From Thermoleophilaceae bacterium (GTDB taxonomy: Bacteria > Actinomycetota > Thermoleophilia > Solirubrobacterales > Thermoleophilaceae): a stretch of DNA of 64,000 bases. This document shows positions 1,035-34,449 of this stretch, in pieces. The DNA lies in the NCBI GenBank assembly GCA_036378175.1, contig DASUWY010000014.1, positions 1 to 64,000 of the forward strand. The letters run 5' to 3'. Each line of letters starts with the position of its first letter. Position 1 is the first letter of the stretch. The position numbers were made by a program, and so were the translations under genes. The notes beneath the pieces were generated by a model. That model worked only from the letters and a program-made list of their open reading frames with translations. It did not search any database and was not told the origin of the DNA.

Positions 1035-2057
1035 CTATGCGTAGACGTACTTGGTGGCCTCTGCCGGCTCCGGCAGCGGACTCTCGATCCCGAAGTCCAC
1101 GGCCGCCTGCATCTCGTCCTTGGCCGACTGCATGATCTCGTCCGCCTGCTCGGCGGACATCACGCCGTCCTGCACGAGCTTGCCGCGGAAGCGCGGCACC
1201 GGGTCGCCCCTCTTGGCCGCCTCGTATTCCTCCGGGTTGCCGAACACCTCGATCGCCTCGTGCTCCGGGAAGTGCAGCGGGATGCCGGGCGGCACGATGA
1301 TGTTGCCGTGCGCGCTGAGGCGGTAGACCTTCGACTCCACGAGCGTCGGACCCTCGCCTGAGCGGGCGCGGTCCACCGCGGCGCCCACCGTCTCGTACAC
1401 GGCCACCGGGTCGCCGCCGTCCACCGTCACACCGGGCATCGAGAACGCCTTCGCCTTCACAGCGAGCGGCTCGCCCGCGGCCGCGTTGGCGTCCTCCTGC
1501 TCGGAGCGCGTGACCACGTTGTAGTTGTTGTTCTCCATGATGAACACGATCGGAAGCTTCCAGAGCGAGGCCACGTTGAGCGACTCGCTGAAAGCGCCCT
1601 GCTTCGAGGCGCCGTCGCCGAAGAAGCACAGCACCACCTGGCCCTGCTTGCGGATCTGCGCGGCGTAGGCGGCGCCCGTGGCCTGCGGAATGCCCTGCGC
1701 CACGATGCCGCTCGTGCCGAGGAAGCCGCGCTCCACGTCGGTGAGGTGCATCGAGCCGCCGTAGCCGCCGCAGAGGCCGGTCTTCTTGCCGTAGATCTCG
1801 GCCATCATCGCCTTCGTGTCGGTGCCGAGCACGATCGGGTAGCCGTGGCAGCGGTAGGTCGTCATCAGCTGGTCGTTCGGCTCCATCGTGGCGAGCGACC
1901 CGACGATCGACGCCTCGGCGCCGTCGGCGAGGTGCGTGTGGCCGCGGATCACGCCCGGGTGCTCCTCGAACGTGCCCTTCACGCGCTCCTCGAACTCCCG
2001 GATCCGCGCCATCTGGGTGAACATCCAGACCAGCCGGTCGTTGTCGAGCTCCTTCAT
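1035..2057 (-). CDS. 2-oxoacid dehydrogenase E1 component, alpha subunit
   Basis: 340 residues. The thiamine-diphosphate/Mg motif is visible as GDG at 147-149 with the closing NNN at 176-178, and HTHLADGAEA near residue 40 is typical of E1 alpha of acetoin/pyruvate dehydrogenases. Start ATG at 2057 is preceded by a strong AGGAGGAG ribosome site. It sits first in a tight pair with E1 beta, so the two are almost certainly co-translated. The xylose-isomerase-like gene ends 16 bp upstream on the same strand, so all three are probably one transcript. Whether the natural substrate is pyruvate, acetoin or a sugar-derived oxoacid is not resolved. Confidence 0.9.
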   Translation of the reverse strand: MKELDNDRLVWMFTQMARIREFEERVKGTFEEHPGVIRGHTHLADGAEASIVGSLATMEPNDQLMTTYRCHGYPIVLGTDTKAMMAEIYGKKTGLCGGYGGSMHLTDVERGFLGTSGIVAQGIPQATGAAYAAQIRKQGQVVLCFFGDGASKQGAFSESLNVASLWKLPIVFIMENNNYNVVTRSEQEDANAAAGEPLAVKAKAFSMPGVTVDGGDPVAVYETVGAAVDRARSGEGPTLVESKVYRLSAHGNIIVPPGIPLHFPEHEAIEVFGNPEEYEAAKRGDPVPRFRGKLVQDGVMSAEQADEIMQSAKDEMQAAVDFGIESPLPEPAEATKYVYA

Positions 2058-2073
2058 CCGCTCCTCCTAGATC

Positions 2074-2943
2074 TCAAGCCACGCCCGCGCGGAACTGCGC
2101 GGCCGTGGTCTCATACGCTCGTTTGAACTCCTCCTCGATCGGGAGGTTCCTCAGCTCCTCGGAGAGCACTTCCACTCCCCACGGGCCGGGATAGCCTGCC
2201 TCGCGGCAGGCGTCGACGTAGGCGGCCACGTTGAACTCGCCCTCGCCGGGAAGCCTGCGGTGGTTCACCACCTCGTCGATGGGGTCGGCCATGTCCTCGT
2301 ACTGGCCGTCTGACAGCTCGATCCAGGTGAGGTACTGGCGCGGGATGCGCTTCATGTCCTCGGGCGGGATGCCGAGCTTGGCCATGTGCCAGGTGTCGAT
2401 GGCGAGGCCGCCGTTGGGCTTGGCGGCGTCGTTCACCACGTGCAGCGCCTTGTCGAGCGAGTTCACGTTCACGTCGAACGGCATGAACTCGTAGACCACC
2501 TTGGCGGCGGTGTGATCGGCCGCGTCCTCGCACAGCTCGGCGAAGCCCTCGGTCACCTGGTCGAGCTCGCTTTGCGTGCCGGGGATGTTCCCGACCTTGA
2601 TGTGGTGGGCGTCGAAGGCGGCCGCGGCGTCGAAGAGGAGCTTGCGGCGCTCGTCCGACTCCGCGCGCCGCGGGTCGCCCTTCGGCACCCAGAAGTCCTG
2701 GAGGAACTCGAGCTGGATGAACTCCAGGCCCGAGTCGTCGAACACCTTCTTCATCTCGTCGAGCGTGGTGCTCTCGAGCTGGTGCTCGATGTCGGCGTGC
2801 CAGAGGCCGATCCCCTTGAACCCAACCTTCGCCGCCTCGGCGCAGCGGTCCCGCCACGAGAAGGTGCTCCACTCGCGCCCCACGTGCACCTCCACGGGTC
2901 CGGAGACGGTCCAGTAGAGAGCCACCAGGTCGACTTCGCCCAT
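2074..2943 (-). CDS. sugar phosphate isomerase/epimerase-like TIM barrel protein
   Basis: 289 residues. An AP-endonuclease-2/xylose-isomerase-like TIM barrel is indicated by the pattern of GFKGIGLWH near the N-terminus, a central VYEFMPFD strand with a metal-binding Glu, LAIDTWHM, and the C-terminal PWGVEVLSEELR strand. These are the usual positions of Glu/Asp/His metal ligands. The open frame extends 14 codons further upstream, but the ATG at 2943 has a clear GAGGAG site, so it is preferred. Family members isomerise or epimerise sugars, inosose or hydroxypyruvate. The link with the E1 pair suggests carbohydrate or polyol catabolism; the substrate is unknown. Confidence 0.75.
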   Translation of the reverse strand: MGEVDLVALYWTVSGPVEVHVGREWSTFSWRDRCAEAAKVGFKGIGLWHADIEHQLESTTLDEMKKVFDDSGLEFIQLEFLQDFWVPKGDPRRAESDERRKLLFDAAAAFDAHHIKVGNIPGTQSELDQVTEGFAELCEDAADHTAAKVVYEFMPFDVNVNSLDKALHVVNDAAKPNGGLAIDTWHMAKLGIPPEDMKRIPRQYLTWIELSDGQYEDMADPIDEVVNHRRLPGEGEFNVAAYVDACREAGYPGPWGVEVLSEELRNLPIEEEFKRAYETTAAQFRAGVA

Positions 2944-3047
2944 CGTCACTCCTCCTCGTTCGAGGGCCGTGTGGCGACCGTACATCCGCGCCCGATGGGC
3001 GTCCAGTCATCCAGCGCATGCCTTCTTGCCGATTTGCGCTCTGGCGC

Positions 3048-3076
3048 TTGGCGCGCCGTTGCCGTGCGCTTACAGT
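3048..3076 (+). promoter_or_regulatory. candidate leaderless promoter of the GMC dehydrogenase unit
   Basis: TTGGCG (3048-3053), a 17-bp spacer and TACAGT (3071-3076) lie so that transcription would start at or next to the ATG at 3083, giving a leaderless message, which is common in actinobacteria. No Shine-Dalgarno sequence precedes that ATG. Pattern match only. Confidence 0.4.
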
Positions 3077-3082
3077 GCGCTC

Positions 3083-3433
3083 ATGCAGGTGCTCGACGAG
3101 GGCCGCGTGAGCGTGGTCGAACAGCTCTGCGAGGCGATCGTTCCGGGGTCTTCGCGCGTGCGGCCCGTCGTCTATATCGACGCGGTCCTGGCTCGGATGC
3201 CGGCACCTCAGCGCGATGCCTTCATTGCCTCCGTTGACGCACTCGAAGGCGCGGACCTGCCCAGCGTCGCGCTCACACCCGAGTTCCTCATGGTGCGCGC
3301 GCTCTGCGTTGAGGCGTTCTACTCGGACTTCGTGGCGCCGGACGGCGAGGGCCCATCGGCCTACGAGGAGATCGGCTTCAACGCCTCTCCCCTTGCCGCG
3401 CGCGTGAAGAAGGACTGGTCGTACCTGGGATGA
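3083..3433 (+). CDS. small partner subunit of GMC dehydrogenase (gluconate 2-dehydrogenase subunit 3-like)
   Basis: 116 residues. The segment from EFLMVRALCVEAFYSD to a closing AYEEIGFN resembles the conserved C-terminal half of gluconate 2-dehydrogenase subunit 3 proteins, small partners of membrane or soluble GMC dehydrogenases. Unlike many of them it shows no twin-arginine signal, so the complex may be cytoplasmic. Its TGA overlaps the ATG of the GMC gene (ATGA at 3430-3433), arguing for fixed stoichiometry. The start at 3083 is chosen because the upstream extension of the frame is not conserved-looking and a leaderless promoter fits. Family assignment is moderate; no catalytic residues are expected. 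Confidence 0.6.
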   Translation: MQVLDEGRVSVVEQLCEAIVPGSSRVRPVVYIDAVLARMPAPQRDAFIASVDALEGADLPSVALTPEFLMVRALCVEAFYSDFVAPDGEGPSAYEEIGFNASPLAARVKKDWSYLG

Positions 3434-4875
3434 GCGAGCGCTTCGACGTCGTGGTGGTGGGCTCGGGCGCGGGCGGCGGCGTGGTGGCCGGCGAGCTCGC
3501 CGAGCGCGGGCGCAACGTGCTGCTGCTCGAGACGGGCCCTCACCTGACGGCGGCCGATTTCGAGCGCTGGGAGTCGAAGGCCTCGCACGACATGTGGTTC
3601 CCGATCCGGCTGGCGCTGCCGGCGGGCGATCCGGGCCGGGGACCCCTGGCGCTGATCAGCGGGCGCTGCGTTGGCGGCACCACCACGATCAACACCAAGC
3701 TTGCGTTGCGGGCCTCGCAGCGGGAGCTCGACAAGTGGCATGCGGCCTCCGGGGTGCAGCTGTCCACGGCCGAGATGGAGCCTTTCTACGACCGCGTGTG
3801 CTCGTACCTGGGTGTGCGCCGGCGGGCGGACTGGAACTGGCGCAAGTGCGTGCGGACGGCGGCGGCTGGGTTCGAGGCGCTGGGCTATGAGCTCGAGCCC
3901 GTGGACGCGTACACGGACGAGAACTGCATGCAATGCGGGTCGTGCCTGCAGGGGTGCCCGACGAATGCTGGCAAGTCGACTTTGAACACTTGGATTCACC
4001 GCAACTGGGTGGCTGGGCATCTTTCGCTTCGACCGGAGTGCTGGGCCTCGCGTGTCCTGATCAGCAATGAGGAAGCGACCGGAGTGGAGTATGTGGATGC
4101 CTCTGGGGCTTCTCACGTGGTTGAGGCCGATGTGGTTGTGGCTGCGTGCGGTGCCTTGGGGACGCCGCAGCTCTTGATGCGCTCCGGCGTGGCGAATTCG
4201 TGGGTGGGGCGCAACCTCGGCTTCCACCCAGCCCAATTCGTGTTCGGGCTGTTCGACGAGCCGCAGGACGCGCACATGGTGGCGCCCATCAGCTCGCACT
4301 TCCTGGAGAACGCACCGGACGACCGCGGCGGCTACATCGTCGAGGCCGTGACCGTGCAGGACCCAATCGGGTTCACCGTGGCTCTGTGCGACGAGAACGG
4401 CCCGATGTGGGGCGAGCCGCTGGTGGAGGCGGCGAAGAAGTACCGCAACTGGGTGGGGCTGCTCTGCCTCTCGAACGACGAGAACAACGGCCGCATCGAG
4501 GTGGATGCCGACGGCAACGAGACCTTCTGGTGCGACTTCCAGCCCCAGGAGATAGAGCGCCAGCAGGCGGCGTTCGAGTTCTCGCGACGGGTGATGGAGG
4601 CGGCGGGGGCGTCGCAGATTCTGTGGTCCTCGTTCGCGTCCACCCACGTGCAAGGGTCGTGCCGGATGGGCGCGGACCGTGACTCAGGCGTGGTGGACGG
4701 TCACGGGGAATCGCATGACGTACGGCGGCTGTACGTGGGCGACAGCTCGGTGTTCCCCCGCACACTGTCGGTGAACCCGTCGCTGACGATCATGGCCATG
4801 GCCACGCGGCTGGCGGATCATTTGGACGCCAACGAGAGCGGCTACCTCTCGGGCTCGCGGCAGCTCGTCGCGTAA
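3430..4875 (+). CDS. GMC-family FAD-dependent oxidoreductase with four-Cys cluster motif
   Basis: 481 residues. An N-terminal Rossmann FAD site GSGAGGG (11-17) is followed by a GMC signature region GRCVGGTTTINTK (78-90). Four cysteines in ferredoxin-like spacing (C166, C169, C172, C176, pattern CxxCxxCxxxC) are a hallmark of the gluconate/fructose/sorbitol-dehydrogenase branch and may hold an Fe-S cluster. The C-terminal GMC domain has the active-site HVQGSCRMG and SVNPSLT motifs. It likely oxidises a sugar or alcohol and passes electrons to a carrier rather than to oxygen. No signal peptide is evident. It overlaps the small subunit gene by 4 bp. Confidence 0.82.
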   Translation: MSERFDVVVVGSGAGGGVVAGELAERGRNVLLLETGPHLTAADFERWESKASHDMWFPIRLALPAGDPGRGPLALISGRCVGGTTTINTKLALRASQRELDKWHAASGVQLSTAEMEPFYDRVCSYLGVRRRADWNWRKCVRTAAAGFEALGYELEPVDAYTDENCMQCGSCLQGCPTNAGKSTLNTWIHRNWVAGHLSLRPECWASRVLISNEEATGVEYVDASGASHVVEADVVVAACGALGTPQLLMRSGVANSWVGRNLGFHPAQFVFGLFDEPQDAHMVAPISSHFLENAPDDRGGYIVEAVTVQDPIGFTVALCDENGPMWGEPLVEAAKKYRNWVGLLCLSNDENNGRIEVDADGNETFWCDFQPQEIERQQAAFEFSRRVMEAAGASQILWSSFASTHVQGSCRMGADRDSGVVDGHGESHDVRRLYVGDSSVFPRTLSVNPSLTIMAMATRLADHLDANESGYLSGSRQLVA

Positions 4876-26913: not shown

Positions 26914-27858
26914 TCAGGTGAGAGGCCTCTTAGTGCCGCCGTTCTGCACGTGCTCGTACCCGAAACGGCCCTTCACACAGAGGTTTCCGCGCGTGATGTC
27001 GTGGTCGTCGGGCGAGTCCACCCGCACCACCTGGTTGTCCTGCACCACCAGATCGAGGTTGCAGCCAACGCCGCAGAAGCCGCAGACCGTGCGGGTGACG
27101 GTTTGCTCCACAGGCTTCCACTCGCCTCGCTCGCGCAGCTCGTACTCGCTCCGCGGCATGAGGGCCCCGGTGGGGCAGACGGCAATGCAGTTGCCGCAGT
27201 ACACGCACGCGGAGTCCGGCAGGTCCACGTTCAGCTCGGTGGAGATGCGGGCGTCGAACCCGCGGCCGGCCACGTGAATCGCGAACGTGTTCTGGTACTG
27301 CTCGCCGCAGGCGTCCACGCACTTGTAACAGAGGATGCACTTGGAGTAGTCGCGCACGTACAGGTCGTTGTCGATCTTCACGGGCTGGTGCACGGTGGCG
27401 GCCGTCTGGCCGTCCGGCACCCGGTGATGCCCGGCCCGCGCGCGGTCGCGGTCCCCGCTGGGAGGCGCCGGCGGGCCGTAGCGCTCGCTGTCGGCTCCGT
27501 ACTGCTGCACGTACAGCTGGGCCTCCGGCGCCGTGGACAGGTCGACGCTCGAGCCGAGGAACTCGAGCACCAGCTTGCGCGAGTGGCGCACGCGCGGCGA
27601 GTCGGTGAGCACCTTCATTCCCGCTTCGGCAAGGCGCGAGCACGCCGGCGCGAGCACCCGAGCGCCCTCCAGCTCCACCACGCACACGCGACACACGTTC
27701 GCGGGCCGCAGCGTCTCCCCGTAGCAGAGCGTGGGAGTGTGAATCCCGGCCTTCTTGCAGGCGTCGAGGATCGTGGCTCCCTCGCGGACCGTCACGGGCT
27801 GGCCGTCCACCTCCAGCTCGACCATGCGCACCCCGGCTTCCGCGTAGATGTCAGTCAT
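26914..27858 (-). CDS. formate dehydrogenase Fe-S subunit: detached N-terminal part of the catalytic chain
   Basis: 314 residues. In order: a [2Fe-2S] ferredoxin domain (C45, C56, C59, C73), a degenerate NuoG-type linker, two [4Fe-4S] motifs (CILCYKC at 174-180 and CVYCGNC at 218-224), and a Molybdop_Fe4S4 domain with C259, C262, C266 and C294. In canonical FdhA/FdsA these all precede the molybdopterin domain in one polypeptide. Here the protein stops straight after NGGTKRPLT, exactly where the canonical chain would run into the molybdopterin domain, which is encoded separately as the first gene of the operon. Start ATG 27858 overlaps the previous gene by 8 bp; ATG 27825 is an alternative. 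Confidence 0.82.
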   Translation of the reverse strand: MTDIYAEAGVRMVELEVDGQPVTVREGATILDACKKAGIHTPTLCYGETLRPANVCRVCVVELEGARVLAPACSRLAEAGMKVLTDSPRVRHSRKLVLEFLGSSVDLSTAPEAQLYVQQYGADSERYGPPAPPSGDRDRARAGHHRVPDGQTAATVHQPVKIDNDLYVRDYSKCILCYKCVDACGEQYQNTFAIHVAGRGFDARISTELNVDLPDSACVYCGNCIAVCPTGALMPRSEYELRERGEWKPVEQTVTRTVCGFCGVGCNLDLVVQDNQVVRVDSPDDHDITRGNLCVKGRFGYEHVQNGGTKRPLT

Positions 27859-29695
27859 CGAAGACCCCCAAGGCGATTGCCGAGGCGATGGCGCTGCTCG
27901 CCGTCTGTCCGAGCCCGCAGATGGACGCGTCGCGCATGCAGTCACCGATCTCACCCAGCAGCGAGATCTCATCGCGCGCGCTGCCGCGCGTGCGGCCGGA
28001 GATGAGCCGCGCGAGCGCCTCCTCCTGCCGCACTGTGCCCACCCTGCACGGCACGCACTGGCCGCACGACTCGTCCCGGAAGAAGCCCGCGATGCGCATG
28101 AGGATGCCACGCATGTCCACGCGGTCGTCGAAGAGCATCACCACCCCCGACCCGAGCGTGGTGCCCACCTCACGCGCGGCCTCGATCGTGAGCTCGAGGT
28201 CGAGCTGGTCCGGCCCCACGAACGACCCGGCCGCGCCGCCGAGCAGGACCGCCTGGAGCGGCCGCCCGCCGGCCACGCCACCCGCCAGCTCGATCAGCTC
28301 ACGGAGCCGCGTGCCGTATGGCACCTCGTACACGCCGGGTGACTCCACGCAGCCGGAGAGACAGAACAACCGCGTGCCCGTGGATACGCCGCCGCCCACG
28401 GACGCGAACGCCGCGCCGCCGAACAGCACGATCTCGGGCACGTTCACGAGCGTCTCGACGTTGTTCACCACGGTCGGCATGCCGAAGAGCCCCTCGGTCA
28501 CCGGGAAGGGCGGCTTGCTGCGCGGCTCGCCGCGATAGCCCTCGATCGAGTTGAAGATCGCGGTCTCCTCGCCGCAGATGTAGGCGCCTCCGCCGCGGCG
28601 GATCTCGATGTCGAAGCTGAATCCGTGCCCCAGGATGTCCGGGCCGAGCAGCCCGCGGGCGCGTGCCTCCTCGAGCGCGACGTCGAGGATCTCGTACGCC
28701 TCCGGGTACTCGCCGCGCAGGTAGATCACGCCGCGTTCGCACGCGGTGGCGTACGCGGCGATCGTCATGGCCTCGATCACGGCAAACGGATCGCCCTCCA
28801 TCAGCACGCGGTCCTTGAACGTGCCGGGCTCGGACTCGTCCGCGTTGCAGACGAGGTAGTGCGGACGCCGCGGCTGCCGCGCCACCGCCTCCCACTTCAC
28901 CCCCGTGGGGAACGCCGCCCCCCCGCGCCCAACCAGTCCCGACTCCTTCACCTCACGAATGACGCCGTCGGGTCCCAGCTCAAACGCACGCCGCAGAGCC
29001 GCGTATCCACCCTGCGCCCGGTAGTCGTCGAGCGAGTGAGGCGACACGCGGCCAACACGGCCCAGGAGTCGAAGGGCAGGTGCGCCAGCCTGGGGCACAG
29101 TGACCCCTCTGACCTCTGACCTATGACCCATGACCTCCGCCGCCGCGGCGTTCGCGTCAGACACCGGCGCAAGCACGACCTCAACGGATTGTTCGCCGGC
29201 CGACGTGACAAGGGCGGCGGGGGCTCGGTCGCATTGCCCGAGGCACGGGCTGCGCACCCACGTGACCTCATGCGAGTCGTCTGCGTTCTCCGGCCCGAGA
29301 CGCTCCTCGAGCGTCGTGATCAGCTCCTCCGCCCCCGCGCACCTGCACGCGATGTCGTCGCACACGTGTATGACGCGCGGCGCGCGCGGCTCCACACTCA
29401 GCAACCCGTAGAAGCTCGCCACGCCGTACACGTCCGCGCGCGCAATCGTGAGCCGCTCGCAGATGTGGTCGAGCGCCGGCTCGCTGATCCAGCCCACTCG
29501 CTCCTGCACCGCGCGCAGCACGGGCAGCAGCAGGTGGCGGCCGTCGCGGGCCTCGTGGCCGCCATGCGCCACGTGACCCTCGGTCTCGTCCGCGCGCGTG
29601 CCGCCCTCCCAGCGCGACACCGCCGGACCGAGCACGGACGCCACCGCCTCCCGCTCCGCGGGACTGGCGACCACGGTGCCGAGGCGAAGGTCCAT
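27851..29695 (-). CDS. NuoE-NuoF fusion, NAD-linked formate dehydrogenase diaphorase subunit
   Basis: 614 residues. Residues 1-160 are a thioredoxin-like [2Fe-2S] NuoE domain with ligands C112, C117, C151 and C155. The rest is NuoF-like: GRGGAAFPTGVKWE (NADH/FMN site), CNADESEPGTFKDR, GAYICGEETAI, and the [4Fe-4S] motif ESCGQCVPCRVGT. It would receive electrons from the Fe-S subunit and reduce NAD+, making the complex a cytoplasmic NAD-dependent formate dehydrogenase (or CO2 reductase). Its ATG directly abuts the stop of the selenoprotein gene. Confidence 0.87.
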   Translation of the reverse strand: MDLRLGTVVASPAEREAVASVLGPAVSRWEGGTRADETEGHVAHGGHEARDGRHLLLPVLRAVQERVGWISEPALDHICERLTIARADVYGVASFYGLLSVEPRAPRVIHVCDDIACRCAGAEELITTLEERLGPENADDSHEVTWVRSPCLGQCDRAPAALVTSAGEQSVEVVLAPVSDANAAAAEVMGHRSEVRGVTVPQAGAPALRLLGRVGRVSPHSLDDYRAQGGYAALRRAFELGPDGVIREVKESGLVGRGGAAFPTGVKWEAVARQPRRPHYLVCNADESEPGTFKDRVLMEGDPFAVIEAMTIAAYATACERGVIYLRGEYPEAYEILDVALEEARARGLLGPDILGHGFSFDIEIRRGGGAYICGEETAIFNSIEGYRGEPRSKPPFPVTEGLFGMPTVVNNVETLVNVPEIVLFGGAAFASVGGGVSTGTRLFCLSGCVESPGVYEVPYGTRLRELIELAGGVAGGRPLQAVLLGGAAGSFVGPDQLDLELTIEAAREVGTTLGSGVVMLFDDRVDMRGILMRIAGFFRDESCGQCVPCRVGTVRQEEALARLISGRTRGSARDEISLLGEIGDCMRDASICGLGQTASSAIASAIALGVFDD

Positions 29696-31627
29696 TCACG
29701 CTCCCTTCGAGACAAACGCGGGCGCGCCCGCGCGGTCGTCGCGCTCGATCTTCTCCACGCGTATCGCCGCCGCCTTGAACTCGGCCGTGCCGGAGCGCGG
29801 ATCGGTGGCGTCGATCGTGAGCTTGTTCGTCTCCACCTGCTCGGGGAAGTGGAACGTCATGAACGCGAGGCCCGGACGCAGCGTCGAGTCCACCCGCACG
29901 GGCGCCGCCACGCTTCCCCTGCGCGAGCTCACGAGCACCAGCTCGCCCTCGGACAGCCCGAGCCGCTGAACGTCCTCGGGCGACAGGTCGATGGTCTCGC
30001 CCCGGTGGAGCGGCGAGCGATAGAGGCCCGACTGAGCCCCCGTGTTGAACGACTCGAGCCGGCGTCCGGTGGTGAGCCTGATCGGGAAGCTCGCGTCGAG
30101 CTCGTCCACCGGCGGCTCGTGCTCCACCACGCTGAACGGCGCGGGCGGCCCAACGAGCGGATCCGCCCACAGACGGTCGTGCAGGAACGGCGAGCCCGGG
30201 TGCGCCTCGTCCGGGCATGGCCACTGGATGCCGCCCATGCGCTCGAGGCGCTGGTAGGCCATCCCGGCATGCATCGGGCTTAGCGACCGCAGCTCGTCCC
30301 ATGCCTCCTCGGCGCTCGGCTCGCCCCACTCGTAGCCGAGGCGGCGGGCGAGCTCGGACAGGATCCACATGTCGTCGCGGGCGTCGCCCGGCGGGTCGAG
30401 CGCCTTGCGCACGCGCTGCACCCGCCGCTCGGAGTTGGTCACCGTGCCTTCCGACTCGCACCATGACGCCGTGGAGGGGAACACCACGTCCGCCATCTCC
30501 GCGGTGCTCGTGAGCAGGATGTCCTGCACCACGAGCAGGTCGAGCCCCTCGAGCAGCCTGCGCGCGCGGCTCGCGTCCGCCTCCGACTGGGCCGGGTTTT
30601 CGCCGATCACGTAGAGCGTGCGAAGGTCGCCGCGCTCCATCGCCTCGAACATCGCGGTGAGGTGCCAGCCGTAGTGCGGGTCGATCGGCACGCCCCACGC
30701 GGCCTCGAACCGCTCGCGCGCGGCGGCGTCCTTCTCGATGTCCTGGAAGCCCGGCAGCTTGTTGGGGATGGCGCCCATGTCGCCGCCGCCCTGCACGTTG
30801 TTCTGGCCGCGCAGCGGGTTGAGCCCGGAGCCCCAGCGGCCCACGTGCCCGCACAGCAGGCCGAGGTTGATCAGCGCGAGCACGTTGTCCACCGCGTTGT
30901 GGTGCTCGGTGATCCCAAGGGTCCAGCAGAGAATCGCCCGGTCGGCGCGGGCGTAGGCGAGGGCGGCGTCGCCGATCGCCTCCGACGGCACGCCGGTGAG
31001 CCGCTCGCCCTCCTCGAGCGTGTACGGCTCCACGGCGGCCGCGTACTCGTCGAAGCCGGTGGTGGCGTGTTCGATGAATGCCCTGTTGTGGAGTCCCGCG
31101 TGGATGATCACCCGCGCCATCGTGTTCGCGAGTGCGATGTCGGCGCCCACGTCGAGGCCGAGCCAGAGGTCCGCCCACTGGGCCGAGGACGTGCGGCGTG
31201 GATCGACCGCGATCATCCGCGCGCCATTGTGGACCCCTCGCAGCAGGTGCTGGAAGAAGATTGGGTGGGTCTCGCGCGCGTTCGAACCCCAGAGGACGAT
31301 GAGGTCCGTCTGCTCGATCTCCCTATAGGACGACGTCCCGCCGCCCGCACCGAACACCGTCGCCAGACCGACGACGCTTGGAGCGTGTCAGGTGCGGTTA
31401 CACGAGTCGACGTTGTTCGAGCCCATCACCTGGCGCGCGAACTTCTGCGCCAGAAAGTTCATCTCGTTGGTGGCCTTCGAGCAGGAGAAAACTCCGAACG
31501 ACCTGCGGGCGTCCGCCTCGCGCGCGCGCGAGAAGCCTTCCGCCGCGCGACCGAGCGCCTCCTCCCACGATGCCTCGCGGAGCTCGCCGCCGTCCCGCAC
31601 CAACGGAACCGTGAGCCTCGACCCCAT
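29696..31627 (-). CDS. selenocysteine-containing formate dehydrogenase, molybdopterin catalytic subunit (UGA = Sec80)
   Basis: 643 residues when the in-frame TGA at 31390-31388 is read as selenocysteine 80. The sequence around it, SCNRT-U-HAPSVVGLATVFGAGG, is the formate dehydrogenase active site, where homologues carry Cys or Sec. Before it lies MGSRLTVPLVRDGGELREAS, the usual start of the molybdopterin domain, and after it WGSNARETHP, GLNPLRGQNNVQGGGDMG and a C-terminal molydopterin-binding domain (IRLTTGRRLESFNTG). The frame is intact on both sides and a SECIS-like hairpin follows. The Fe4S4 domain that normally precedes this region is absent and encoded two genes later. ATG 31627 has a GAAGGAG site. 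Confidence 0.88.
31358..31376 (-). promoter_or_regulatory. bacterial SECIS-like hairpin
   Basis: On the mRNA, CGUCGUC (31376-31370) pairs with GGCGACG (31364-31358), leaving a GGUCU apical loop (31369-31365). The loop begins 18 nt after the UGA. Escherichia coli fdhF has the same GGUCU loop at the same distance, as SelB requires. One of the seven pairs is a G-U wobble. Confidence 0.78.
31388..31390 (-). other. in-frame UGA selenocysteine codon
   Basis: On the minus strand the codons read Thr-TGA-His at the active-site position of a formate dehydrogenase. Coding continues without a break for 563 more codons in the same frame. Confidence 0.87.
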
Positions 31628-31767: not shown

Positions 31768-33291
31768 TCAGCCGCTCACCGTGAAGGGGATGTGCTGGCC
31801 TGCCTGGTAGTGGCCGGGCATGATGCACACCAGCTCGTAGCTCCCGGGCTTGAGCGTGGCGGACACCGTCGCGCTCTTGCCGCCCATCAGCTGCGGGCTC
31901 TTGGCGAGGGCGCCGCTCGGCACCCCGGCGTTCAGCTGGGCGGGCGCCCTGACGATGGCGAACTGGTGCATCGTCGCGCCGCTGTTTCGCACCTGAAAGC
32001 TCACCTTCCCGGCCTTCGCCGACGACACCGGCGACTTGATCCACATGTCGCCGAGCGTGACCGCGATGCCGCCCTTCGCCGCCGGGGCCGGCGCGGTCGC
32101 GGCGGGAGCCTTCGGCATCGGAGCGCCGGTGGTGTGGAACATTCCGGCCGCGCCCTTGGCCATGTCGCCGAAGGAGTGGGTGACGAAGGGGTAGTTGCCC
32201 TCCTGGTCGAGCGTGAACTCCACCCAGCCGCCCTGCGACGGCGCGAGATTGACGGTCTGCGAGTCGTGCCCCACCACGCCCTCGATGTGGGTGGTGTCGA
32301 ACACAGTGCCGATCACGTGGAAGGCGCTCCACTTGCTGGGGCCCGCGTCGAGGACGTAGGCGCGGATGCGCTCGCCCTTCCTCACGGTGATCGGGTTCAG
32401 CTTGTACTGGTTGGCGTAGCCGTTGAACGCCATCACGTCGGGCTTCTCGGCGTTCACCTTCGCCATGTCGGTGAGCCCGCCTGGCTGGCCGATGTAGAAC
32501 TCGTTCTGGACGAGCCACACCTCCTTGTCCACCGGCGCCAGCTTGCGCGGCTTGACGACCATCATTCCCGTCATCCCCGCCCCGGTGTGCATCAGGATCG
32601 GCTGCGTGGCGCAGTGGTACATGAACACGCCCGGGTGCTTCGCGACGAAGTTGATGGTTTCCGACTTGCCGGGGGCGATGTCCACGTAGTACTTGGAGGG
32701 CGCGACCTCAGCCGAGTGGAAGTCGATCGAGTGGGCCATGTTCACGTGCATGGCCTTGTTCGCGCCGTTCACGAATTTGATGGAGACCTGGTCGCCCTCG
32801 TTCACCACGATCGGCGGCGAGGCGGCGGTGCCCTTGTAGACCTTGCCGTTCACGGTGTAGGTCCACGCCTGCACCGGAGCCAGAGCGGGGTCGACCTGAA
32901 CGACGTGCTGGTCAACGCCCACGGTGAAGTGCTTCACCGCGCCCGGCGGGACCGCCGGGAGCGTGGGATCGACCGGCTGGAACTTCTCGAACTTCATGCC
33001 CTTGGCGTCGGCAAGGGTGGGCGCCGAGCCTGTGGTGTCGGCGGCCATCGCGTGCCCGCCAGCCGCGGCCGGTGCGTTCATGCTCGCCGCGGGCGTGTTG
33101 TCGTTGCTCGTCTGGCCGAGCTTCACGAGCGCGACGATCAGGGCCAGGATCGCCAGCAGCGAGGTGAGGCCGACTCCGACCATCATCCACGCGCGCCAGT
33201 CGCGATCGCGCAGCCCCTCTGCGGCCGCGTAGTCGAAGTCCTCGTGCCGAATTCGTTCGGCTTCCTCTGGGGGTGTGAGTACAGGTGCCAT
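31768..33291 (-). CDS. nirK: membrane-anchored NirK-type copper nitrite reductase with C-terminal cupredoxin
   Basis: 507 residues from the ATG at 33291 (GGAGGAA upstream). A cytoplasmic N-terminus and one membrane span (35-57) precede two cupredoxin domains. All NirK ligands can be placed: type 1 H187, C227, H235, M240; type 2 H192, H226, H372; catalytic D190 and H325. After a Pro/Ala linker (390-405) a third cupredoxin (408-507) has H442, C489, H494 and Q499, the last where blue copper proteins usually have Met. It would reduce nitrite to nitric oxide outside the membrane, the extra domain probably delivering electrons. A multicopper oxidase is less likely because the ligand set is the NirK one. 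Confidence 0.82.
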   Translation of the reverse strand: MAPVLTPPEEAERIRHEDFDYAAAEGLRDRDWRAWMMVGVGLTSLLAILALIVALVKLGQTSNDNTPAASMNAPAAAGGHAMAADTTGSAPTLADAKGMKFEKFQPVDPTLPAVPPGAVKHFTVGVDQHVVQVDPALAPVQAWTYTVNGKVYKGTAASPPIVVNEGDQVSIKFVNGANKAMHVNMAHSIDFHSAEVAPSKYYVDIAPGKSETINFVAKHPGVFMYHCATQPILMHTGAGMTGMMVVKPRKLAPVDKEVWLVQNEFYIGQPGGLTDMAKVNAEKPDVMAFNGYANQYKLNPITVRKGERIRAYVLDAGPSKWSAFHVIGTVFDTTHIEGVVGHDSQTVNLAPSQGGWVEFTLDQEGNYPFVTHSFGDMAKGAAGMFHTTGAPMPKAPAATAPAPAAKGGIAVTLGDMWIKSPVSSAKAGKVSFQVRNSGATMHQFAIVRAPAQLNAGVPSGALAKSPQLMGGKSATVSATLKPGSYELVCIMPGHYQAGQHIPFTVSG

Positions 33292-33498
33292 TTCTTTGGG
33301 TTCCTCCGTGCTTGCCTTTCTGCTCCGAGCATCGGTCCCAGGCCAGGCGCTGCGAAGGGCGGAAATGGCGAAAGTCATTCCGGCGCTCGGCCGAGCCCAT
33401 ATCCGGCCGTTATCGCCTCCGTAGTTGTCCGCCGGTTGGCGGGCGTCCGGCTTCGGGGAACTACTGAGTCCCGCCAATCGACCGATAGCCTCCCTTCC

Positions 33499-34449
33499 AT
33501 GGCCTCATCCGAGCGGCCCCCGGACATCAACGAGCTGCGGACGTTCTGCACCGCCGCGGACTCGGGCAGCCTCGGGCGCGCGGCGCTTCGGCTGGGGGTG
33601 TCCCAGCCCGCGCTGTCCAAGCGGCTCGCTTCGCTCGAGAGTCTGGCCGGCACGCAACTGCTCGAGCGCTCGTCGAAGGGCGTGAAGCTCACGCCCGCGG
33701 GGCGGCGGCTGTACGACGAGGCGCGGCGCCTGCTCGAGCAGGCGGACCGGCTCGACGAAGTGCTGGTGGGGCTGCGCCGCTCGGGCGGTCCGGTCCGGCT
33801 CGCCTCGAGCCATTCCGCCGCCGAGGCCATCGTGTCCGATCTGCTCGGGGACCTCGGCGGCGAGCGACCCCTCCCGGTGGAGCTCACCACCGCCAACTCC
33901 ACGGTCGTAAGGGACCTCGTTGCCGATGGCCGTGCGGATTTGGGGGTGGCGGCAAGCCGTCCGCATCACACTCCATACCCGGGCGTGCGCGAGCTGCCGC
34001 TGCTGGAGGACGAGGTGGTGTGCGCGGTGCCGCTCGCACATCCGTGGGCGCGGCGGCAGCAGGTCTCCCTGCCCGAGTTCCTGCGCACGCCGATGGTGCT
34101 GCGCGACCCGTCGTCGAACGCGCGCTGGACCGTGGATGCCGTGCTCCGGGAACGTGGCCTGGGCGCCCCGCCGGCCCTGTGCGAGGTGGGCACGCCGCAG
34201 GCCGCCAAGAGCGAGGCGCGTGCACGGAAGGCGCCCGTCCTGCTCTCGCGGTACGTGCTCCGCACGCGCGACTTCGCGGTGGTCGAGGTGGAGGACCTCG
34301 CTTTCCCGCGGAGCTTCGTGCTCGTGCTGCCGGCCTACGGCGAGCCCACTCAGGCCGTGAATGACCTGATCGAGCGGCTCCGGATGCGAGCTGACGAGCT
34401 GCACTCGGGCGGCCCCGTGGAGCACGCCGCCCAACCGGCGTCGCAATAG
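33499..34449 (+). CDS. LysR-family transcriptional regulator
   Basis: 316 residues. The N-terminal winged helix is clear (NELRTFCTAADSGSLGRAALRLGVSQPALSKRL in outline, about 10-43), followed by a linker helix and a two-lobed substrate-binding domain (PVRLASSHSAAEAIV, LGVAASRPHHTPYPG). It is divergent from the nirK-like gene with 207 bp between starts, the usual layout for a LysR protein controlling its neighbour. A much longer open frame upstream is antisense to nirK and not part of this gene. Confidence 0.86.
   Translation: MASSERPPDINELRTFCTAADSGSLGRAALRLGVSQPALSKRLASLESLAGTQLLERSSKGVKLTPAGRRLYDEARRLLEQADRLDEVLVGLRRSGGPVRLASSHSAAEAIVSDLLGDLGGERPLPVELTTANSTVVRDLVADGRADLGVAASRPHHTPYPGVRELPLLEDEVVCAVPLAHPWARRQQVSLPEFLRTPMVLRDPSSNARWTVDAVLRERGLGAPPALCEVGTPQAAKSEARARKAPVLLSRYVLRTRDFAVVEVEDLAFPRSFVLVLPAYGEPTQAVNDLIERLRMRADELHSGGPVEHAAQPASQ

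What the first reader, a model, noticed from the sequence alone, without database searches (positions are those of the whole stretch)
31358..31627. Selenocysteine formate dehydrogenase with a SECIS element matching the E. coli loop and spacing
Seen: an in-frame TGA (31390-31388) at the active-site position SCNRT-U-HAPSV, coding potential intact on both sides, and a 7-bp stem with a GGUCU loop beginning exactly 18 nt after the UGA. Known: E. coli fdhF uses the same loop and distance for SelB. Inference: the organism makes selenoproteins. Automatic annotation would split this gene into a 79-residue fragment and a truncated protein. selA/selB/selC/selD are not in the window.
Basis: partly seen in the sequence, partly recalled or inferred. 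Interest (0 to 1): 0.85.

Follow-up and report, generated by a model that had tools for sequence, protein, structure and literature searches.

The report
Selenocysteine formate dehydrogenase, split alpha subunit
A soil-type actinobacterium reads an in-gene UGA "stop" as the rare amino acid selenocysteine to build a formate-oxidising enzyme; this is a real, widespread but already known kind of gene, whose one less usual feature is that the enzyme's main chain is encoded as two separate proteins.

Summary
The in-frame TGA at 31390-31388 lies at the Mo-ligand position of a formate dehydrogenase (FDH), 18 nt before a GGUCU loop on a 7-bp stem. The genome holds tRNA-Sec, SelA, SelB, SelD and FdhD. 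TGA sits at this column in 105 of 110 homologues more than 60% identical. The other five have Cys, are nested in the tree (one Sec-to-Cys change), and come from genomes without SelA; seven TGA genomes checked all have SelA. The hairpin covaries, and a second UGA-containing FDH in the same genome has the same spacer, loop and stem length. The same three-gene cluster (640/614/316 aa) is published in Actinomycetospora chiangmaiensis, where formate removal needs selenium. So it is a new member of a known kind.

(1) The Sec chain is only the catalytic part: the [4Fe-4S] domain that normally begins the alpha subunit is the C-terminus of a separate iron-sulphur protein two genes downstream, in all 64 loci where it could be read. 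(2) The stem is unbulged with a 5-nt loop, so it matches E. coli fdhF in loop and spacing but not in stem geometry. I found no paper describing the split.

The parts
29696..31627 (-). fdhA: catalytic Mo-bisPGD subunit of formate dehydrogenase, 643 aa with Sec80; lacks the N-terminal [4Fe-4S] domain
   Evidence: Pfam Molybdopterin 8e-68 and Molydop_binding 9e-26; TIGR01591 positions 52-672; model matches E. coli FDH-H 1fdi, TM 0.91
31388..31390 (-). UGA read as selenocysteine (Sec80)
   Evidence: TGA in 105 of 110 close homologues, Cys in 5
31358..31376 (-). bacterial SECIS hairpin: 7-bp stem, loop GGUCU at 31369-31365, 18 nt after the UGA
27851..29695 (-). fdhB: fused FdsG/FdsB (NuoE/NuoF-like) diaphorase subunit, 614 aa; its ATG follows the fdhA stop directly (TGAATG)
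   Evidence: Pfam 2Fe-2S_thioredx, Complex1_51K, SLBB, NADH_4Fe-4S
26914..27858 (-). fdhC: iron-sulphur subunit, 314 aa (2Fe-2S, 4Fe-4S ferredoxin domains, C-terminal Molybdop_Fe4S4 domain); overlaps the end of fdhB (ATGACTGA)
26971..27084 (-). C-x2-C-x3-C-x27-C-V-K motif: ligands of the [4Fe-4S] cluster next to Mo and the lysine equivalent to E. coli FdhF Lys44, carried in trans
   Evidence: TIGR01591 positions 1-50 match fdhC residues 256-305; invariant C259, C262, C266, C294, K296; 64 of 64 loci

Best explanation
This is a three-gene operon for a cytoplasmic, probably NAD-dependent molybdenum formate dehydrogenase whose catalytic chain contains selenocysteine. SelB carrying Sec-tRNA-Sec binds the hairpin just after the UGA and inserts Sec80, which ligates Mo in the active site (UGA decoding inferred; machinery and codon shown). 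Formate is oxidised at Mo. Electrons pass to a [4Fe-4S] cluster held by the C-terminal domain of the separate FdhC chain, then through its other clusters to the FMN/NAD site of the fused FdhB diaphorase (inferred from domain content and FdsABG structures). FdhC's C-terminal domain replaces the N-terminal domain that is part of the same chain in other FDHs.
For: Full Sec machinery plus FdhD in the genome. TGA in 105 of 110 close homologues, none with another stop or residue there, 5 Cys. The five Cys forms are nested in the tree, one change; their genomes lack SelA while 7 of 7 TGA genomes have it (Fisher p 0.0013). In the class, 29 of 32 TGA-FDH genomes have SelA against 162 of 367 others (p 1.6e-7). 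Hairpin columns 16-21/27-32 pair in 94 of 94 sequences, with a C-G/G-C exchange in 16. A second UGA FDH in the same genome has an 18-nt spacer, GGUCU and a different 7-bp stem. Active-site His81 and Arg273 invariant. Split. Published relative FDH3 with Se-dependent formate removal (PMC7176365).
Against: No protein evidence for Sec in this organism. Single-sequence folding favours another register. SelA also occurs in many genomes without this FDH, so the association is not exclusive, and related genomes are not independent. NAD as acceptor and assembly of FdhA with FdhC are inferred from homology only; the C-terminal tail of FdhC is modelled with low confidence.
Confidence: 0.95

Rival explanations
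1. The TGA is a true stop or a sequencing error and fdhA is a broken gene or two short proteins.
For: Standard annotation rules give two ORFs; draft genome in 89 contigs.
Against: Same TGA in 105 homologous loci from other assemblies, with conserved reading frame and about 70% identity on both sides; Cys at exactly this column elsewhere; complete Sec machinery.
Confidence: 0.01
2. The UGA is read as Cys or Trp by a reassigned code or a near-cognate suppressor, not as Sec.
For: Cys occurs at this column in five relatives.
Against: UGA serves as a stop elsewhere in the operon (fdhA, fdhB and fdhC all end in TGA); the tRNA with anticodon UCA is a tRNA-Sec; loop and stem are conserved only with TGA and decay in the Cys forms.
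Confidence: 0.02
3. The conserved hairpin only reflects codon choice for the conserved peptide PSVVGLATVF and is not a SECIS.
For: The peptide is highly conserved; 0.7% of synonymous recodings have loop and stem by chance; shuffles do not remove relatedness.
Against: GGT is invariant for Gly in 94 of 94 Sec forms but GGA, GGG or GGT in Cys forms; paired third positions switch together; the second FDH in the genome has the same geometry with a different stem.
Confidence: 0.02
4. The substrate is not formate: another Mo-bisPGD oxidoreductase with Sec.
For: TIGR01591 score 645.1 is slightly below its cut-off of 666.25.
Against: The missing score lies in the 50 N-terminal positions that FdhC carries; active-site U-H and the LRGQNN Arg are invariant; best structural matches are FDHs; FDH3 of A. 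chiangmaiensis is linked to formate removal (PMC7176365).
Confidence: 0.03

Closest known systems
Actinomycetospora chiangmaiensis FDH3 (FdhA3/B3/C3; PMC7176365)
   Same: Sec-containing cytoplasmic NAD FDH; three genes of 640, 614 and 316 aa (here 643, 614, 314); a congener (L114) has the same gene set with TGA and SelA
   Different: Different class of Actinomycetota; the main text of the paper does not discuss the location of the [4Fe-4S] domain; the A. chiangmaiensis sequence itself was not compared here
E. coli FDH-H (FdhF) and its SECIS
   Same: Sec at the Mo site, UGA-CAC context, 18-nt spacer, GGUCU loop; fold TM 0.91
   Different: FdhF carries its [4Fe-4S] domain in the same chain; its hairpin pairs in a different register, from general knowledge with a bulged U17
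Rhodobacter capsulatus FdsABG and Methylorubrum extorquens FDH1
   Same: Same domain set; FdsG-FdsB fusion as in M. extorquens FDH1 (fusion recalled, not tested); FdhC matches the N-terminal part of their alpha chains
   Different: Their alpha subunit is one chain of about 950-990 aa; here it is two chains
Actinobacterial membrane FDH (NF041513) with Sec, as FDH1/FDH2 of A. chiangmaiensis
   Same: Second UGA FDH of this genome (L166, 1066 aa, 1874 bits) has the same SECIS geometry
   Different: A distinct, single-chain FDH-N-like family

Membership tests
Bacterial selenoprotein gene | In-frame UGA at a position where homologues have Sec or Cys | tested here: met
   105 TGA and 5 Cys among 110 close homologues
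Bacterial selenoprotein gene | tRNA-Sec, SelA, SelB, SelD in the genome | tested here: met
   All over curated cut-offs
Bacterial SECIS | Hairpin after the UGA with 16-37 nt between UGA and apical loop (PMC10778597) | tested here: met
   18 nt, conserved and covarying
Bacterial SECIS | SelB binding and UGA recoding | not testable with these tools
   Needs a reporter or mass spectrometry
E. coli fdhF-type SECIS | Same loop and spacer | tested here: met
   GGUCU after 18 nt in both
E. coli fdhF-type SECIS | Same stem register (bulged U17, 6-nt AGGUCU loop) | tested here: not met
   Here an unbulged 7-bp stem closes a 5-nt loop; none of the seven position pairs forms in E. coli
Mo/W-bisPGD formate dehydrogenase | Catalytic domains with Sec/Cys-His and conserved Arg | tested here: met
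Mo/W-bisPGD formate dehydrogenase | [4Fe-4S] domain at the N-terminus of the same chain (usual form; not essential if supplied in trans) | tested here: not met
   Absent from all 109 catalytic chains; present at the C-terminus of the separate FdhC in 64 of 64
NAD-dependent FDH (Fds type) | FMN/NAD diaphorase and FeS subunits in the operon | tested here: met
NAD-dependent FDH (Fds type) | NAD reduction by formate | not testable with these tools
   Enzyme assay needed
NAD-dependent FDH (Fds type) | FdhD sulphurtransferase available | tested here: met
   C60, 213.7 bits

The most novel reading that the evidence does not exclude
This operon represents an undescribed architectural class of formate dehydrogenase in which the alpha subunit is split, so that the [4Fe-4S] cluster and the lysine next to the Mo-pterin are supplied in trans by another subunit. 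The class is almost always selenocysteine-containing and is found in contigs assigned to Actinomycetota, Acidobacteriota, Chloroflexota, Planctomycetota, Gemmatimonadota and Eiseniibacteriota. The first electron-transfer step would cross a subunit interface, and the Cys form in Streptomyces and relatives would be a natural replacement in the same scaffold.
Probability: 0.4. Interest if true: 0.5.

Novelty: new member of a known kind. Interest (0 to 1): 0.33.

Why it matters
It shows Sec use in a lineage (Thermoleophilia, order Solirubrobacterales) for which I found no paper on selenoproteins, and adds a broad, testable set of selenoprotein FDHs from mostly soil and water bacteria. The split alpha subunit, if biochemically confirmed, would let the catalytic and electron-exit modules of an FDH be expressed and exchanged separately, and the clade gives a natural Sec/Cys comparison in one scaffold.

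Tried and rejected
Rfam found no RNA family in the window. Single-sequence folding was not decisive and favours another register for the window hairpin; I rejected that register because its pair 21-30 is broken in 16 of 94 and it pairs less overall. Literature searches on a split alpha subunit and on Solirubrobacter or Thermoleophilia selenoproteins found nothing on point; most subscription journals are not in that library. Some alignment or scan calls failed on coordinates and were repeated with corrected ones.

Full report
What was seen. On the minus strand an ATG at 31627, preceded by GGAAGGAGTGACGT, opens a frame that reaches a TGA at 31390-31388 and, read through, continues to 29696: 643 residues with Sec80 in DSCNRT-U-HAPSVVGL. 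By table 11 it falls into a 79-aa and a 553-aa ORF. Eighteen nucleotides follow the UGA, then GGUCU closed by a 7-bp stem (31376-31370 with 31364-31358), one pair being U-G. Among 1410 TGA trinucleotides of the window this is the only one with that exact arrangement, though 0.7% of synonymous recodings of the same peptide would show it.

Is it selenocysteine? The genome (4.29 Mb, 89 contigs, 95% complete) has a tRNA-Sec with anticodon UCA, SelB with its C-terminal part, SelA directly beside it on the same contig, SelD and FdhD. Of 110 homologous loci above 60% identity, 105 have TGA at this column and 5 have Cys: Nocardiopsis, three Streptomyces, Glycomyces. The five Cys rows form one nested group, one change on the tree, with support 87 for the group and 99 for its union with a TGA neighbour (quick search, site column masked). 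Their genomes have no SelA, whereas all seven TGA genomes checked have it. Across 399 genomes of the class, 29 of 32 with the TGA gene have SelA, against 162 of 367 without it; the three exceptions are fragmented assemblies. Genomes are related, so the p-values are indicative only.

The hairpin. In 94 distinct sequences the loop GGUCU is invariant and pairs 16-32 to 21-27 (counted from the U of UGA) are standard in every one; pair 18-30 is C-G in 78 and G-C in 16, pair 20-28 is U-G, C-G or U-A. All slid registers do worse. The Cys forms lose the loop and stem in part. Vienna folding of the single sequence prefers another register, which the alignment does not support. A second UGA-containing FDH of the same genome (L166, 1066 aa, NF041513, 1874 bits) has UGA, 18 nt, GGUCU and a 7-bp stem of different sequence. 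E. coli fdhF has the same spacer and loop but none of the seven position pairs; from general knowledge its stem has a bulged U17 and a 6-nt loop. So the resemblance to E. coli is in loop and spacing, not in the whole element.

What the enzyme is. fdhA is followed, with TGAATG and ATGACTGA junctions, by a fused FdsG/FdsB diaphorase (27851-29695) and an iron-sulphur protein (26914-27858). fdhA lacks the N-terminal [4Fe-4S] domain: TIGR01591 positions 52-672 match FdhA, while positions 1-50 match residues 256-305 of the last gene. The motif C-x2-C-x3-C-x(about 27)-C-x-K-G, whose lysine corresponds by position to Lys44 of E. coli FdhF (sequence; its role is general knowledge), is at the C-terminus of that separate protein in 64 of 64 loci where the gene could be read, and in none of 109 catalytic chains. 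Its Cys and Lys are invariant in 44 sequences. AlphaFold models agree: the catalytic chain matches E. coli FDH-H (TM 0.91), and FdhC matches the N-terminal part of one-chain alpha subunits of R. capsulatus, R. aestuarii and M. extorquens FDH. No listed PDB match to FdhC is a short chain ending in this domain.

Mechanism. Shown: codon, hairpin, machinery, domain content, gene order. Inferred: SelB-directed insertion of Sec80 as Mo ligand; formate oxidation at Mo; electron exit to a cluster on FdhC, then to FMN and NAD on FdhB.

Comparison with the known. Actinomycetospora chiangmaiensis has three Sec FDHs; its cytoplasmic FDH3 has subunits of 640, 614 and 316 aa, was detected in the proteome, and formate removal in that strain needs selenite (PMC7176365). 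A congener found here (L114) has the same gene set, TGA and SelA. FDH alpha is the commonest bacterial selenoprotein (PMC5029168). The finding is therefore a new member of a known kind. The split alpha subunit is the part for which I found no description, but the library searched is incomplete.

Taxonomy. The tree and shared contigs place the window's genome in Thermoleophilia, with a same-order genome titled Solirubrobacterales.

Noticed in passing
L166 (G000:C41), 1039-4239 +; UGA at 1603-1605: A second selenocysteine formate dehydrogenase in the same genome (NF041513, 1066 aa), with an 18-nt spacer, GGUCU loop and a 7-bp GC-rich stem; followed by what looks like its FeS subunit.
   Followed up: partly
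31768-33477 (-): Multicopper/cupredoxin protein (Cu-oxidase_3, Cu-oxidase_2, Cupredoxin_1) directly upstream of the FDH operon, of nitrite-reductase or multicopper-oxidase type.
   Followed up: no
33550-34449 (+): LysR-type regulator divergent from the cupredoxin gene and the FDH operon; possible regulator.
   Followed up: no
G001, G002 and others of the same family: SelA is present in the same-genus genome G001 and in many relatives in which this FDH was not found, so other selenoproteins (such as the NF041513 FDH) probably sustain the trait there.
   Followed up: no
L059 (Spirochaetaceae bin103), L099 and L109 (Eisenbacteria), L103 (Planctomycetota): The split Sec-FDH appears in contigs of scattered phyla, suggesting horizontal transfer or, for some metagenome bins, misbinned contigs.
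   Followed up: partly
L153, L155, L158-L160: Several homologues carry a second in-frame TGA inside the matched stretch; perhaps the natural stop at the C-terminal end, not examined.
   Followed up: no
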